Assembly: GCA_009733715.1 (NCBI GenBank)
Contig: WMKJ01000012.1
Coordinates: 1-64,000 of the forward strand
DNA: 64,000 nucleotides
Direction of reading: 5' to 3'
Source of the DNA: Herpomyces periplanetae
Lineage: Eukaryota; Ascomycota; Laboulbeniomycetes; Herpomycetales; Herpomycetaceae
Position 1 is the first letter of the stretch. Each line of letters starts with the position of its first letter. The notes beneath the pieces were generated by a model. That model did not search any database. It had not been told where the DNA came from and saw nothing but the letters and a program-made list of their open reading frames with translations. The translations under genes and the position numbers were made by a program. This document shows, piece by piece, positions 26,953 to 40,569 of this stretch.

Positions 26953-27610
26953 CTATATTTGTATAGGAAATCTCAGCAGTAAGTTAATTGGATGGCAGTC
27001 AGCTTGTGGTTCAAATAATGAACGGATTATATGGTGAGATGCAATATATTCTTGGCAAAAGTGGTACGGAGCTACAGAATTTATTAAATGATAATATTCT
27101 CCGCCATTTCTGGGAATTGCTTTTACGTTAATCAGAGAACCCCTAGAATATATAGTTGCGGGCTCATTTTCGATGTAAAGTTTTTGATCCAAAAACCCTG
27201 AGGCCAGTTGAGAAACTACACAAATTAGAATAATCTTGGAAATACTCAATTACACAAATAAATACCTGGACTAGTATTGCTTAACGTTTGACTTGGACAG
27301 GATACAAATATCCGACCAGAATGCTCAACCTTGAAGCGAACGCTTTAAAATGTTTAGAAAGGCTAAACTAAGTGACATAGAACTATTTTAAAACAAGATA
27401 ACATACTTACACATTGGCTAACGAATTTTCGGTTACTGATTCGGGTACAATATATAAATATCTATCATCCAAAACCTGAATGAGATAATCATAGCCTACT
27501 TCAAGACCCAAGTGTTTATTGAGCACTCTTGCGTATAAAACACCTTCTACACGGATAGCATGAGTAAAATTAAGCAAGTAAAAGAGAGGTAATAAGCTAA
27601 AAAGAATCAT
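26953..27610 (-). CDS. Candidate secreted effector, family A, member 1 (2 exons)
   Basis: I read exon 1 as 27,610-27,411 and exon 2 as 27,142-26,953, which gives 129 residues. The donor GTAAGT is canonical; the acceptor TATTCTAG is the one that keeps phase and fits the paralogue, but the 268-nt intron is long for this window, so the join is uncertain. Residues 1-18 (MILFSLLPLFYLLNFTHA) form a classic signal peptide. Exon 2 has FCQEY and ADC with two cysteines (about 96 and 116) separated by exactly 19 residues. The tandem gene at 28,665-29,309 has the same exon-1 layout, the same Cys-x19-Cys spacing and FC..H.I.SL..DC in register. No known domain is recognised. Signal peptide, one intron, a cysteine pair and a repeat-rich setting suggest a host-directed effector, which is inference. 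Confidence 0.6.
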
Positions 27611-28664
27611 TTTGAAGTATTGAGTTTTGGAGATTGAATTATTGAATGATTAGATTTCTTTAAATAATATAATATTGAATAAAGCACACGAAAACAAATC
27701 GGAGTACTGTGTCGAAGACACGTTTTACGGGTGATGAAAATTAGCATGATTTCATGCCGGTAAACTCATTTTGAAGAAGCGATTGTGAAGGATTTAGCAT
27801 AAATGTGCAAGTGTCGAGAAGTTCAAATGGGTTGGCTAACTGGGTGAAGGGAATACATGGGTTTAACGTTGAACTAAGAGTGGGAATAAAATTCCAACTT
27901 TTTTACAGCCACTCTGATAGGGATGAGCACTTTTAGAAATTAGATTTATTCGGTAATACTGCCGCTTAATTTTAGCATACATATTATTTTGGCATGCGAT
28001 TGTTCAAGTAAGTGTAATACAGAAATGTTAGGGCGAATTTGCCTTTGTTTCCATTGACCGAGAAACTTTCCAACTAACTAGTATTTTCACGATACTTTGC
28101 AAAAAGAGTTGTATTACTCACGCATCACCGGGCGGTGGGGGATGGTACTAGTGTACGGGATTTTACTATAAATTTTAGCACTGAAAAAATGGGTTAGTAG
28201 TATGTTAAATGTGCTTCAGTTACGAACTGAAGAAAATACGGACGCGTGTAGTTAACATGGGCAAGTTTTGAGGTACAAATAATGTATTCTTTGACGATTA
28301 ATAGCATAGTAAGGATTGGTTATCTATAACTTTGGAGTGCTTGAACTGCATTTAGCATTTGCATGGATACCGTGATGTAAACGGGTTTTATGCATAAATG
28401 AAGTAACGCATGGTTTATAAAATTACGCGAGATTTTAAGTTATATTTGAGCAAAAAAGGCACTGAAATTTATAAATGTATGTAAAGCAGAAGACGTAGAT
28501 ATATTGGGTGCCAGTACGGGACAATGACGGTTAAGGAGTGAATTTTGTTTGATTCAGCGAGCTTATTTTTCCGATTGAGTAGAGAAAATATGTTGAATTG
28601 CAAGGGGATAATTTAGTTGAAGGAAAGATTTAATGTAGGATTAGCCAAGGGAAAAAGGATGAAT

Positions 28665-29309
28665 TTACTGGGTGAGGCGAAGATGCACAAATACATTTCG
28701 ACAATCCATTCTGGCATAATACAAGGATAAAATCATATGGTAGCCGTCACGCAGACTTTCACAGAAAAATCTCATACAGCTAGGAACTACGGAGAGGACT
28801 TCTCCATTTATCCCGGGTTTAGTGGTGGCGATTAACAGTTCATGTTCAGATGCGCCAGGTACAAAATTTAAGTTCAGAAAAATACTTCCATTACGCCAAT
28901 TCGTGTAAATAAAAGAGCCTATTTATGTCAGGAGGTTTAGAATAGTATCGACATAATGATGTAAGAGTACCTGATGCTCCATGATGGGGAGAATACGATG
29001 AAATTATTGCCCAAAGCCTACCGTAATTATCAATTCTAGTACGGAATCTAATATTCATAAAGTTGTAAGCTCTACGTGAAAAAGGTTTAGGAAAATGTGA
29101 TAAATGTAATACGATTTATGGGTACTAGCTTGTGCTGGTGATGATGCAATAAACAAATTTCCATTTTCCAAAGCCATGACGGGATATTCATGGTTTTCTT
29201 TAAGATCCCCACTTGGTTGTAGTGGTGTGACGAACAATGATCCTTCGACATGCTGAGAATGAACTAATTTAAACAAGAGAAATAGCAGTAAAATAATGAA
29301 GGATGGCAT
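28665..29309 (-). CDS. Candidate secreted effector, family A, member 2 (2 exons)
   Basis: Exon 1 is 29,309-29,126 and exon 2 is 28,918-28,665, together 145 residues; phase is kept (1 then 2 bases). The donor GTACCC is weak, so the exon-1 end is the least certain point. Residues 1-18 (MPSFIILLLFLLFKLVHS) are a signal peptide, followed by QHVEGSLF, matching IRVEGVLY in member 1. Both go on to an ALENGNLFI / VLDDRYLYI block. Exon 2 carries FCESLRDGYH and MDC, with cysteines at about 114 and 134 spaced by 19 residues as in member 1. Exon 2 lacks an ATG and would be missed by ORF calling. It lies 1.1 kb upstream of member 1 on the same strand, so a tandem duplication with strong divergence is likely. 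Function unknown. Confidence 0.6.
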
Positions 29310-29474
29310 GACTTGAGGAAATGAGTTAAGAAGAATAAGGTAGGACTATAACTAAGTAAGATTGAAGGTATTTTCTACAAGGAAAAAATTAAACTTGACG
29401 GGATCATTAAATATGAGATAAGATATCTTTCTAAAACTTTTGAAAATTAAGCAGAAAAATAACGGTAACATGAA

Positions 29475-30161
29475 TCATTGCAAGCAGAAGTATACAGTAA
29501 TTCGGGTAAAGGTATGCGCTGTATCCATGAAATCAATGAGTTTGCCCAAATCGACTTCAAAATACGTCTGGAACGGGTCGCGCTGAAAAACACCGGGTGC
29601 AACCCGAGAATCAAGAGCAAACTCCAAGGGAATAACCGAGCGCTGTGCCCAAAATACTTATAACGATTGTTTACGATTCCATTTGGGATTTTAGGAAATT
29701 TAACGATGGCATTTAATTGGTAAACTACTTGACTTACCTTGTTGGTAGCTTTATGCTTTGCTAGCTTCTGCAATGCTTCTAAAATCTTATGATGGTTAAT
29801 TTTATGTGTACTGCCTGTCTGAGGATAAATGCAAGTTATCTGTCTACGCAAATGCGACCAAGGGTAATAGTTTAATTTTTCATGGTTTTGTCGCAATTTA
29901 CTGATAAATTTATCACTGATTACATCTTCTTCAACTTCAGAATAACATTTATGTTGATGTATAACATGAACAACAAATGATTGGGAGTTTTCACCCATAG
30001 CAGAACAGGATTAATGCCCCTTGAATTCTCTAATTACCAAAACTTTGGCTGTCAAGCAAATCTTCTATAACTCTTCTACGCAAAATTGATCTAGGCTGGT
30101 ACGTTTTTCCAAAGTTTATGCAAACATATACAAAGAGAAAGTAAATTGTGCTATAATACAT
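29475..30161 (-). CDS. Candidate small secreted protein (3 exons)
   Basis: My preferred model joins 30,161-30,038, 29,934-29,738 and 29,582-29,475, giving 142 residues with phase kept. Exon 1 encodes a hydrophobic start (MYYSTIYFLFVYVCINFG) that looks like a signal peptide, then an Arg-rich SILRRR. Exon 2 ends at a canonical GTAAGT after KATNK; exon 3 follows TTTTTCAG and encodes RDPFQTYFEVDLG to the stop. The second intron is well supported; the first uses GTAATT and TTCTGAAG and is less sure. A simpler alternative starts at the ATG at 29,998 and lacks a signal peptide (122 residues). An YYPWSHLRRQ block and a Cys about 10 residues later recall ribonuclease-like mildew effectors only loosely. 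No domain is recognised. Confidence 0.45.
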
Positions 30162-32337: not shown

Positions 32338-33283
32338 ATGAAATATTTTATAGTTCTGATTAAACTTGCTATTATTTCCTGGCCATATTTCTTGAAATGT
32401 TCGCATGCTTTCATGGGAATATCAAAAGGGAAATATAATGTTCAACAAAGTACACCATCAACAAATAGTGAACCACCAGATACCGAAAAATCCAGGCTTG
32501 AACTCAACCAGTATGTCGTCAATGACCATAAAGCGGGGCAATTATACAAATATAGAGAATTTATCATCATGGCGTATGTGATGGAAGAAATAGATGCAAA
32601 GAAGGGAAAGAACTCGTGGATAGAGTCAGGAGGGAGTTTTTTCGTGAATGTAGGAGGGACTGATCCAGTTTTATATTTCAGTAAGTAAAAGAGAAAGGCT
32701 GTTAGTGAATTAAAAGTCTTAACAAAAGGGACTTTTCCCATTGTTACGTTTAGCTTATATCAGGGCATTCCCATCACACTTTCATGTTATGTATGATGCA
32801 GAAACGAGGAAAAATTTTTTGATTATACAGTTTAATGGCACATTGTGTGACTTGACAGGAGATCAAAACAAGCCCATTGGGCCGCGATATAAGTCAAGTC
32901 AGCCTGTGAAAAAAATTTCAGTGATAGGAAATCATATAACTCCTGATGACGGAAAAGTATTCGCAACGGCTTATGTGAATAACATGAACTATATATATCA
33001 TATTGACTCCAAATTGATGAGGTTTTTTCCTGCTATGAAAAGGATTTTTATGGTGCTTCTAGAAACAAATAACTACTATAGTAACTGTCGTGAGATTGAA
33101 GCCGAATGTGATGATAAGTTTAAGGATCGAGTGTTAACCTGGAATTCAAACCTACCCACCACAGAGTTACCCATGCCAAAATACACATGTCGATCCCAGA
33201 AACACGATTTTCGAGGGCCTCCACCGGATTACGAAGCTACTCCAGGTTATGATAGTCGATTGCCACCCCACATGGTTAATTAA
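32338..33283 (+). CDS. Candidate secreted effector, family B, 290 aa (2 exons)
   Basis: Exon 1 is 32,338-32,680 and exon 2 is 32,754-33,283; the 73-nt intron has GTAAGT and ACGTTTAG and splits a codon after base 1. Residues 1 to about 24 (MKYFIVLIKLAIISWPYFLK) are a hydrophobic signal peptide. The mature part is polar, with SFFVNVGGTDPVLYFS before the intron and FPSHFHVMYDAETRKNFLI after it. Cysteines lie near 146, 226, 233 and 260. A GPPPDY segment (PPxY, about 271-274) lies near the C-terminus. It faces the 469-aa gene at 34.7-36.2 kb, which has the same intron phase and a similar block around the intron. No known domain is recognised. A secreted, lineage-specific effector is the likeliest reading. 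Confidence 0.7.
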
Positions 33284-36968: not shown

Positions 36969-39773
36969 TTAATCTCGATCGCCCAAGATAAAATCAATCA
37001 AGTAAGTATCTTGTTCAAGTTTAGTTAGTCGTTGAAGATTTCGCTGAGTGTAGGCAGAAATCGCACTAAACACATTACGACAATCATTTCTAGTGTGAAA
37101 CAATGCAACGATGGCATCATTCCCAACAGGATCATGGTCCGATTCAACCAACGAGTATAGTGCGGCTAAACGAGGCGCTGGAATACTTCGTAATATCGAC
37201 GACAGTAATACTTGAGCAATTTCCGTGAACTTTGGAGATGCATTCCAGTCTCGAATCCATAATAATACCATGTACAGTTGAGATGATGATAAATCTTTTA
37301 CAAGATTGTTTAGTACATCACCACATAAATCATTCAAAGTCAGATGCATTTCGCGCAAAATTTTCTGAAGGCTTTGGGGTCTATTCATCGCAATCGCCAT
37401 TCCAAACGCTTCACGAGTCTGTCCAGATAAGACCAAATTTGTCAACTTCTGCTCATCTTCTACTAATTTGGCCCGTTCTCGAACTGCATCTTCGTGGCGC
37501 TGTCGCGACTTATCAACCCAAAAGTTAATTACCGAATCAGCTCCCGCAGATATAAGAATAGTTTGGTCATCCTCTTGACTATCCTGAGATTTAAAATCTT
37601 CCAAACTTGCCTCAGCAGTCTCCGCCACCTGCTTCGCCCCATTTACCTTAACACGTCGACTCGCTAACCCCCAAACTCTATCTTGATGACCATCAAGAGT
37701 ACATGCGCATGTCTCATCTACTATATCCCAAATTTTAACAAGACCATCAGCTCCACATGAAGCTATTAACAATGATCCATCTTTTCGAAGCCTTGGTTCT
37801 TTATAATTATCCTCATCATTTTTGTTTTTTACTTGGTTTATTCCACCAAATGGAATCCATATCACTCGCAAAACGCTGTTACTGTGCCCCTCAAATGTCG
37901 ATATACATGTATAATCACTTAAACTCCATAGTTTGACACTTTTATCCCCCGATCCCGTTATTACAAGTCCTTTTTTGACCGACCCATTTCTCTTATTAAC
38001 TTGAGGTATATTTATATGTTCACTAAACGGACAAAATCGGATCGTCCAAACCCCTCTAATGTGTCCTTTCAATTCTCCAAGAGCTTCTCCACTCTTCAAA
38101 TCCCATATTTTTACTAACCTATCTTGACTTGCTGACCCAAATATAGTTTTGTTCCCTTGCATCATCGAATCAAGCGCATTAATCTCCTTACTATGCGCTT
38201 TACGTGTATACATTGCTTTTCCAGTCCGACTTTCTCCCTTTTTCATCTCACGTAGCGAGCTCGGCACGCTCCATACTTTAATAGTTAAATCTTGACTACC
38301 CGTTATTAACCACTCCGGTTCGTCCCGTATTCTTGCTTCGTTTTGCTCATTCTTACTATGATGTCTTGGTAACGCAATTCCTCCTATTGATTCTGTATGT
38401 CCTGTAAAGGTACAATAACATTCAAATATACCTTTATCCGGTTCAATATACCATAATTTTGCCTTTCCATCCTTAGATCCTGTGGCGAGCCAGTTACCTG
38501 ACGCATCAACATCCAATGCTATCACAACATCACTATGCCCGTTTAAATTTCCTACTTCTGTTTCGTAGGACGGAGCCAACTCATCAGGAATATCCATATT
38601 TCCATTTCCCTCAATCTGCCCTGTCCTAATAATCTTAACATCCCCTGTATTGGTCGCCAATGCTAGGTAACTCCAATCACGACCCACCAGTGAAATGTCA
38701 AAAATTTCTTCGTATGTACCCATGATCCCCCGGACTACTTTATCCACTACTTCTTTTTTCCCCGTTGACGTTTCTTTAACTTTAACTCGATGAAATTTCA
38801 ATGCTTGATCTGCATGTACCGATACAATATATTCCAATTTTAAGCTTGTTAAAACACTAATAATTCCATCTGTACCATTCCCCAATACTTGATTAGTTGA
38901 TATCTCACCACCACTTCTTGTGGACCATAAACGAAGTACACCTTTTTCACCTCCGGTATACGCTACCAAATTATTTTTTAAAAAGCCACAACTCTCTACA
39001 CTTTCCATACACGGTATGGTATGTCGTATTTTCCATGATTTATCCTCCCAGATGACCAAGGTCCCATCTCGGCTAGCCGAAATAAGCACGTTTTGCTCAC
39101 AAGAATAGGCTAGACAACGTACGATGGATACGTGAGACTTTAGCGTACTTTCCACGGTTTTGGCGTAAATATCATATATAATAATTTTACCATCTTCACC
39201 ACCAGATGCAAGCATGAGCCGAGTGGTTTCGAGTAAACTTGGTAGCTGACCTTTTTTTCGCCGTATAGAATTGCTCAAGTCTTGTTCGTAGGTGAAAAAG
39301 CATAATGACGTTATTAGAGTTCCATGCCCATGAAAAGTATGTGTAACAAAACCACCCCGAATATCCCAAATTTTAAGAATTCCATCGGCTCCACCGGTGG
39401 CTAAAAATTTTCCATCATCATCGGTGATTGCTGCTACCACAGGTGCATTATGCGCTTTAATAGATCGTTCAAGTTCCACACGATGTTGGCTTGAGTCTAA
39501 AGATATGCAAAATATTCGCATTGAAAAAGATCTTGAGCAAACGATAACTCGATCAGCCAGCGGCGTCAATGCTAGTGCAGTAACGATTTCACCATCTCCA
39601 GGTATTCTTCCGATAAAGCTGGTGCTTTGGAGATTCGATAATATTACATCTTCATTCAACGTTGTAGCGAGCACATAATTTCCTCGACTAATATCAATAG
39701 GTCCACCGCTATAAAAAGGTCTGATGGCTTTGACAGCGTCAAAGCAAGTGGTGATTGGTTCACATGCCAGCAT
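36969..39773 (-). CDS. UTP13: U3 snoRNP / SSU processome subunit UTP13 (TBL3)
   Basis: A single-exon protein of 934 residues, the usual size of Utp13. Residues about 50-760 hold a long series of WD40 repeats, visible as recurring GGADGILKIWD, SASRDGTLVIW, GSKDGKAKLW, GSQDLTIKVW, GSGDKSVKLW and CGADGLVKIWD blocks; these form the tandem beta-propellers of the family. The last 150 residues (from about 780) match the helical Utp13 C-terminal domain that follows the propellers and mediates assembly in the UTP-B complex. UTP-B binds pre-18S rRNA in the nucleolus. The ATG at 39,771-39,773 fits the family N-terminus (ACEPITTCFDAVKAIRPFY). Absence of introns in a gene this long contrasts with the multi-exon small genes nearby. 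It shares a divergent intergenic region with PRE1. Confidence 0.95.
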   Translation of the reverse strand: MLACEPITTCFDAVKAIRPFYSGGPIDISRGNYVLATTLNEDVILSNLQSTSFIGRIPGDGEIVTALALTPLADRVIVCSRSFSMRIFCISLDSSQHRVELERSIKAHNAPVVAAITDDDGKFLATGGADGILKIWDIRGGFVTHTFHGHGTLITSLCFFTYEQDLSNSIRRKKGQLPSLLETTRLMLASGGEDGKIIIYDIYAKTVESTLKSHVSIVRCLAYSCEQNVLISASRDGTLVIWEDKSWKIRHTIPCMESVESCGFLKNNLVAYTGGEKGVLRLWSTRSGGEISTNQVLGNGTDGIISVLTSLKLEYIVSVHADQALKFHRVKVKETSTGKKEVVDKVVRGIMGTYEEIFDISLVGRDWSYLALATNTGDVKIIRTGQIEGNGNMDIPDELAPSYETEVGNLNGHSDVVIALDVDASGNWLATGSKDGKAKLWYIEPDKGIFECYCTFTGHTESIGGIALPRHHSKNEQNEARIRDEPEWLITGSQDLTIKVWSVPSSLREMKKGESRTGKAMYTRKAHSKEINALDSMMQGNKTIFGSASQDRLVKIWDLKSGEALGELKGHIRGVWTIRFCPFSEHINIPQVNKRNGSVKKGLVITGSGDKSVKLWSLSDYTCISTFEGHSNSVLRVIWIPFGGINQVKNKNDEDNYKEPRLRKDGSLLIASCGADGLVKIWDIVDETCACTLDGHQDRVWGLASRRVKVNGAKQVAETAEASLEDFKSQDSQEDDQTILISAGADSVINFWVDKSRQRHEDAVRERAKLVEDEQKLTNLVLSGQTREAFGMAIAMNRPQSLQKILREMHLTLNDLCGDVLNNLVKDLSSSQLYMVLLWIRDWNASPKFTEIAQVLLSSILRSIPAPRLAALYSLVESDHDPVGNDAIVALFHTRNDCRNVFSAISAYTQRNLQRLTKLEQDTYLIDFILGDRD

Positions 39774-40569
39774 ACTAGAAATTTTAAGTGTGGTTGTATA
39801 AGAAATTGTATAATTGACTTTTCGATAGATTATGTGCTTGAATTATTCAAATTTTCCTTAAGCTATTGCCCTTCTGAATTAAAAAAAAAGAAATTTTCCC
39901 GTAAACCTATCAATGATACTACGTAGATATATCTTATTCGTGAAAAAACTTTCAAATTTTGCCCAAAATTCCCCAACCAAATTATTCGGATTAGTCAGCC
40001 ATTATAATTAAACAAGGAGGATAGGATGAAGACATGATGGGTGATCAAAAAGAGGATGAAATTAATAGTAAATTGCAAGAACAAATGAATATCATGGAAA
40101 AAAAAATTACGTGTTAATACAATTGAATATTATCGTTTTAAATCCCTTTTTCTATTATTATTGTTAAAAAAATTAAACAAAAGATTTGTTTTTATGAACA
40201 TTAAATCAAAAACTTGGAACAAACCGCTCCGCACCACGCAATTTATTCTCCCACCACAGACCTTGCTCCCGAGAAATATCCGAGATTAGTAATTTGGATA
40301 TACATCGTCCTGGAAAAAGGAAGGGCAAAATCATGTGATGGAGGGGTTTGGAGTTGGTGATGGTTATGTTGATGGATTTTTGAACGAATTAATGAAGAAA
40401 TTATTTAGGGAGTTTGGTGTATATAATAGTGCATATGAACGTGAAAGGGTAATTGGCAAATTTATCAATTTTTTTTGCAATATATTTCGTTGATAAATTT
40501 AATGGTTTAAAAACACTTTGAAAAATTACGCCTACTCATAGCTTCAACTTTTAAGTAGTATATGGTAAA
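39774..40569. promoter_or_regulatory. Divergent intergenic region UTP13 / PRE1
   Basis: About 800 bases separate the two start codons, which point away from each other, so both promoters lie here. AT-rich; no clear TATA box or known operator was identified. It holds no gene I can support. Confidence 0.4.

What the first reader, a model, noticed from the sequence alone, without database searches (positions are those of the whole stretch)
26953..29309. Two tandem secreted paralogues with an exact Cys-x19-Cys pair
Both 2-exon genes have a signal peptide, a VEG(V/S)L(Y/F) start, an LY/LFI block before the intron and an exon 2 with FC..(H).I.SL..DC. The two cysteines are 19 residues apart in both. 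I know no family with this pattern. Exon 2 of the upstream gene lacks an ATG and is easy to miss. Signal peptides and cysteine spacing are seen directly; the effector role is inferred.
Basis: partly seen in the sequence, partly recalled or inferred. Interest (0 to 1): 0.8.

Follow-up and report, generated by a model that had tools for sequence, protein, structure and literature searches.

The report
Orphan pair of secreted fungal proteins
Two neighbouring genes of a fast-evolving fungus appear to encode related small secreted proteins with no relative found so far; they look like ordinary effector-type candidates, and each probably has three exons rather than the two first proposed.

Summary
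The pair is real. Gene A (27610-26953, minus) and gene B (29309-28665, minus) encode paralogues with likely signal peptides. Both carry F-C-x7-H-x-I-x-S-L-x5-D-C, so the Cys-x19-Cys spacing holds.

The mature A-B score rises from 74 to 92, and same-phase three-exon models arose in both genes in 2 of 5000 shuffles (40 of 5000 under a laxer rule). The middle exons alone are only weakly similar (65 of 2000 shuffles reach the score).

No relative was found: no Pfam match near its cut-off, no PDB match to B, nothing in a 5.8-billion-protein database, nothing else on the 182-kb contig. Genome-wide searching was insensitive. Utp13 places the organism beside Eremomyces on a very long branch. An effector-like role is the best guess without direct evidence; exon 3 gave no usable fold. 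Interest is modest.

The parts
27411..27610 (-). Gene A exon 1: signal peptide, VEGVLY start, ends phase 2
27343..27410 (-). Gene A intron 1, 68 nt, GTAAGT..AAG
   Evidence: prediction
27266..27342 (-).
27216..27265 (-). Gene A intron 2, 50 nt, GTATTT..TTCTAAT..GTAG
   Evidence: prediction
26953..27215 (-). Gene A exon 3 with the Cys-x19-Cys pair (C146, C166) and stop; whole protein 179 aa
29113..29309 (-). Gene B exon 1: signal peptide, VEGSLF start, ends phase 2
29072..29112 (-). Gene B intron 1, 41 nt, GTATTA..CTAAAC..GTAG
   Evidence: prediction
28971..29071 (-).
28919..28970 (-). Gene B intron 2, 52 nt, GTACTC..CTGAC..ATAG
   Evidence: prediction
28665..28918 (-). Gene B exon 3 with the Cys-x19-Cys pair (C152, C172) and stop; whole protein 183 aa

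Best explanation
A and B are a diverged tandem duplicate of a secreted protein so far known only here, with three exons and intron phases 2 and 1. Shown by sequence: common descent, matching gene structure, hydrophobic leaders, no other membrane-like stretch, one shared cysteine pair. Inferred: the proteins pass through the secretory pathway, the pair closes one disulfide that pins the C-terminal part of an about 18-kDa fold, and the mature proteins act outside the fungal cell, most likely as non-enzymatic effector-like binders at the contact with a living host, diverging fast after duplication.
For: Mature A-B local score 92, z 13.3, 0 of 2000 shuffles; exon 1 alone z 6.3 (1 of 2000 reach it) and exon 3 alone z 7.7 (0 of 2000). 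Mature hydropathy maxima 0.61 and 0.93 over 19 residues, so no membrane anchor. No Pfam match near its cut-off, no PDB match for B, no protein relative. Two further predicted secreted genes of unknown family lie within 7 kb. The genome is small (13.79 Mb), the lineage fast-evolving by Utp13, with no cutinase match and two Egh16-like places.
Against: No expression, secretion or host data; the leader calls rest on an unspecific heuristic (17 frames flagged in the window). The organism and its lifestyle are unknown; no cutinase and two Egh16-like places are thin evidence. Middle-exon similarity alone is weak (z 2.4, 65 of 2000 shuffles reach it) and its junctions are not unique. Codon use is inconclusive: exons fall between the coding and non-coding averages, and the chosen frame is best of three in 4 of 6 exons but in neither middle exon. 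The two introns I read by eye in the chaperonin gene are 117 and 121 nt, longer than the 41-68 nt proposed here. Only two members are known, so conservation of the cysteine pair rests on one comparison.
Confidence: 0.5

Rival explanations
1. One reading: one long intron in each gene, proteins of 129 and 145 aa.
For: They are open and share exon 1 and most of exon 3; the A donor GTAAGT is canonical; A-B z 10.0. Codon use does not favour the middle exons.
Against: Intron phases differ between the paralogues, the alignment needs a 14-residue gap and the score is lower, 74 against 92; introns are 268 and 207 nt; no two-exon model of A passes the filter. Same-phase middle exons in both genes are rare in shuffles (2 of 5000).
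Confidence: 0.08
2. A secreted protein with a job for the fungus itself (wall, surface, mating, or acting on other microbes), not a host effector.
For: Nothing in the sequence tells an effector from other small secreted proteins of unknown family; the lifestyle is unknown.
Against: Such proteins are often better conserved across related fungi (general knowledge); none was found among 5.8 billion proteins, although the lineage is so diverged that this argument is weak.
Confidence: 0.3
3. Sequence-diverged members of a known effector fold such as the RNase-like CSEPs of powdery mildews or the MAX fold (compatible with the best explanation, a narrower claim).
For: Size, one shared cysteine pair and shared intron positions recall those families (PMC3582587 passages); known folds hide behind unrelated sequences (PMC9632046 passages).
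Against: No YxC motif in the first 30 mature residues; no cysteine near the N-terminus of either protein, so a MAX-type disulfide from the first strand is not possible. The only model, exon 3 alone, was meaningless.
Confidence: 0.25
4. Decayed or untranscribed copies whose open frames are accidental.
For: Codon use lies between coding and non-coding; no expression data.
Against: Both genes are fully open over three exons with matching phases, and exons 1 and 3 are each conserved.
Confidence: 0.07

Closest known systems
Candidate secreted effector proteins (CSEPs) of powdery mildews, including the RNase-like group
   Same: Signal peptide, small, loosely clustered paralogues, short ones usually with two or three cysteines, relative intron position used as evidence of common origin (PMC3582587 passages)
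   Different: No YxC motif in the first 30 mature residues, both shared cysteines in the C-terminal part; probably three exons; not a powdery mildew by Utp13
MAX, ToxA-like, LARS and FOLD effector families of Pezizomycotina
   Same: Families of small secreted proteins that keep little sequence identity (PMC9632046 passages)
   Different: No PDB sequence match for B; cysteine layout unlike the MAX disulfide; fold unknown here
Bicycle genes of aphids (gene-structure homology among gall effectors)
   Same: Gene structure used to find relatives when protein similarity fails (PMC9168663, start of abstract in a search listing only)
   Different: Insect genes; no relation claimed

Membership tests
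Fungal candidate effector (working sense, recalled: small, secreted, no membrane anchor, no conserved domain, lineage-specific, expressed in the host) | Signal peptide and no further transmembrane stretch | tested here: met
   Hydropathy heuristic only, no SignalP, unspecific (17 frames flagged in the window):
Fungal candidate effector | No known domain, no relative outside the lineage | tested here: met
   Pfam (best B match 12 bits against a cut-off of 27); protein database, limited to relatives sharing exact five-residue words
Fungal candidate effector | Expressed during host colonisation | not testable with these tools
   No RNA data
RNase-like CSEPs of powdery mildews | YxC motif (Y, F or W, any, C) within the first 30 mature residues; in 307 of 491 CSEPs, so typical rather than strict (PMC3582587) | tested here: not met
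   None in A; only FFC at residue 150 in B
RNase-like CSEPs of powdery mildews | Ribonuclease-like fold | tested here: inconclusive
MAX effectors | Disulfide between strands beta1 and beta5 (PMC9632046) | tested here: not met
   First cysteine at 82 (A) or 147 (B); shared cysteines only in the last exon. Inference from layout, no fold

The most novel reading that the evidence does not exclude
A and B are founding members of a new effector fold with a C-terminal F-C-x7-H-x-I-x-S-L-x5-D-C clasp, made by a small-genome, fast-evolving, Eremomyces-like lineage that lives on a host, in a locus where a second, unrelated set of predicted secreted genes of unknown family (C and D) sits next to them.
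Probability: 0.2. Interest if true: 0.5.

Novelty: new member of a known kind. Interest (0 to 1): 0.3.

Why it matters
It adds one pair without known relatives to the large class of small secreted fungal proteins, in an organism whose closest Utp13 found is only 42% identical. The practical lesson is the gene model: comparing paralogues for intron phase exposed a probable missed middle exon in both genes, which adds 50 of 179 residues to A and 38 of 183 to B and would change any later structure or expression work.

Tried and rejected
Rejected: that gene A continues into another exon beyond 26953. The idea came from aligning A's last-exon frame to B's middle-exon frame; that alignment has z 2.8 against 7.3 for last-exon frame with last-exon frame. 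Rejected: that neighbours C and D belong to the same family (SW z -1.2 to 0.7; the A+B profile scores below zero on their parts after the intron). Rejected: powdery mildew as the source (Podosphaera Utp13 is 40% identical and lies elsewhere in the tree). Led nowhere: codon-use scoring of exons, AlphaFold of exon 3, repeats, Rfam on the window, paper searches for an Eremomyces-like small genome (3 papers; 10 listed of 11, none fitting by title and abstract start). The VEG-x-L/F-F/Y DNA pattern has 32 places genome-wide against 28 for the reversed control; of the 30 given as loci, only A and B have a signal-peptide-like stretch upstream, judged by eye. The first null test (0 of 400) shuffled coding tails too and is superseded.

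Full report
What is there. The window lies on contig C22 (182,392 bases) of a 13.79-Mb, 220-contig genome. On the minus strand, gene B begins at 29309 and gene A at 27610. Both start with a hydrophobic leader followed by VEGVLY (A) or VEGSLF (B). The leader scan is a home-made heuristic and flags 17 frames in the window, so it is supportive, not proof.

The gene models. These are open (129 and 145 aa) and the two proteins are clearly related: mature local score 74, z 10.0, 0 of 2000 shuffles. But exon 1 then ends in phase 2 in A (200 nt) and phase 1 in B (184 nt). Reading the introns, I found a stretch in each that resembles the other: A RFKVEHSGRIF, B RTRIDNYGRLW. Joining these gives A exons 27610-27411, 27342-27266, 27215-26953 (179 aa) and B exons 29309-29113, 29071-28971, 28918-28665 (183 aa). 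Introns are 68, 50, 41 and 52 nt, in phases 2 and 1 in both genes. The mature local score rises to 92, z 13.3, 0 of 2000.

How sure is the middle exon. On its own its similarity is weak (z 2.4; 65 of 2000 shuffles reach it). Codon use does not help: the chosen frame is best in 4 of 6 exons, but in neither middle exon. The structural argument is stronger. Of 5000 shuffles, 799 gave a model in A, 102 in B, and 2 gave models of the same phases in both; without the branch-box rule 2268, 491 and 40. The real genes do so under both rules. The exact junctions are less sure: 16 three-exon models in A and 4 in B pass the filter, and the best same-phase pair by its scoring differs from the one reported here. 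For comparison, the two introns of the beta-subunit chaperonin gene nearby (identified against PDB chains) are, read by eye, 117 and 121 nt, between the two proposals. I give a middle exon in both genes about 90% and each exact junction less.

The cysteine pair. Both last exons contain F-C-x7-H-x-I-x-S-L-x5-D-C without a gap, so the cysteines are 19 residues apart: A C146/C166, B C152/C172. Each protein has one further, unshared cysteine (A C82, B C147). With only two sequences, conservation is a single comparison.

Relatives. No PDB match for B (A was not run against the PDB). The database does hold fungi: the neighbouring Utp13 found 1170 relatives, 120 listed. Across contig C22, searched in 13 separate pieces that add up to its 182,392 bases, the profile finds the six exons of A and B (E 1.2e-9 or better, by construction); the next best match has E 2.7. 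Genome-wide, searches with single proteins find only the genes themselves, but they are insensitive: A does not even find B. The VEG DNA pattern has 32 places; of the 30 given as loci only A and B follow a signal-peptide-like stretch, by eye. So further diverged members elsewhere are not excluded.

The organism. Utp13 (36969-39842) is best matched by Eremomyces bilateralis at 42% (779 bits; next 720). In a tree of 34 rows (the query and 33 of the 120 listed hits) it pairs with Eremomyces at 100/100, but with an end branch of 2.81 changes per column against a median of 0.39, and odd composition, so long-branch attraction is possible. It is probably a fast-evolving Pezizomycotina species with a small genome; one gene supports this. 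No cutinase match was found (of the tool's 14 control genomes one is positive), and two Egh16-like places were found on contig C143. The lifestyle is unknown.

Surroundings. Up to 29,446 no stop-to-stop frame reaches 150 aa. GC is 27-35% up to 22 kb, without the dinucleotide signature of RIP (thresholds recalled). To the right lie housekeeping genes: Utp13, a zf-UBP/UCH ubiquitin hydrolase, the chaperonin, an IRE1-type kinase/RNase, an Erv26-type adaptor and a WBS methyltransferase. Between them and A/B sit two more genes with signal-peptide-like leaders, C (from 32338, plus strand) and D (from 36166, minus strand), each with a GTAAGT donor in phase 1 in the best models; the acceptor of C is ambiguous. 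Their frames have no Pfam match above cut-off and no second copy in the genome by single-protein search; they were not searched in the protein database. They show no similarity to A/B and weak similarity to each other (z 2.6, 10 of 500 shuffles).

Structure. Only exon 3 could be sent, as a contiguous frame; with two sequences it gave pLDDT 35.3 and pTM 0.24, which says nothing.

Mechanism. The sequences show leaders, common descent and one shared cysteine pair. I infer one disulfide, export, and action outside the cell, most likely on a host. No catalytic residue set is recognisable with two sequences, so a binding role seems more likely than an enzymatic one, but this is a guess from the behaviour of similar proteins.

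Known families. The YxC motif of powdery mildew CSEPs and the MAX disulfide are not met (definitions from passages of PMC3582587, and PMC9632046). Membership by fold is untested. The finding is a new member of a known kind, effector-like secreted proteins without known relatives, with a corrected gene structure.

Noticed in passing
window 32338-33283 (+) and 36166-34673 (-): Two further genes with signal-peptide-like leaders, C and D, without a Pfam match above cut-off; weakly similar to each other (z 2.6), sharing a C-x(0 or 2)-R-S-x3-D-F-x2-P-P-P stretch read by eye; D carries a run of histidines.
   Followed up: partly
window 1-26000: AT-rich stretch with no stop-to-stop frame of 150 aa or more and no RIP-like dinucleotide bias; content unexplained.
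   Followed up: partly
L048 and L049 (contig C143): Two Egh16-like places in the genome; one match reads across a TAG, which may be an intron.
   Followed up: no
window 29447-30010 (-): Open frame upstream of B with a GTAAGT near 29740, not flagged by the leader scan; a spliced 142-aa reading has no Pfam match at E up to 0.01.
   Followed up: partly
A 27610-26953, B 29309-28665, C, D: All four secreted-type genes have D/N/K-C-R/H followed one residue on by I, L or V; seen by eye, not supported by alignment scores.
   Followed up: partly
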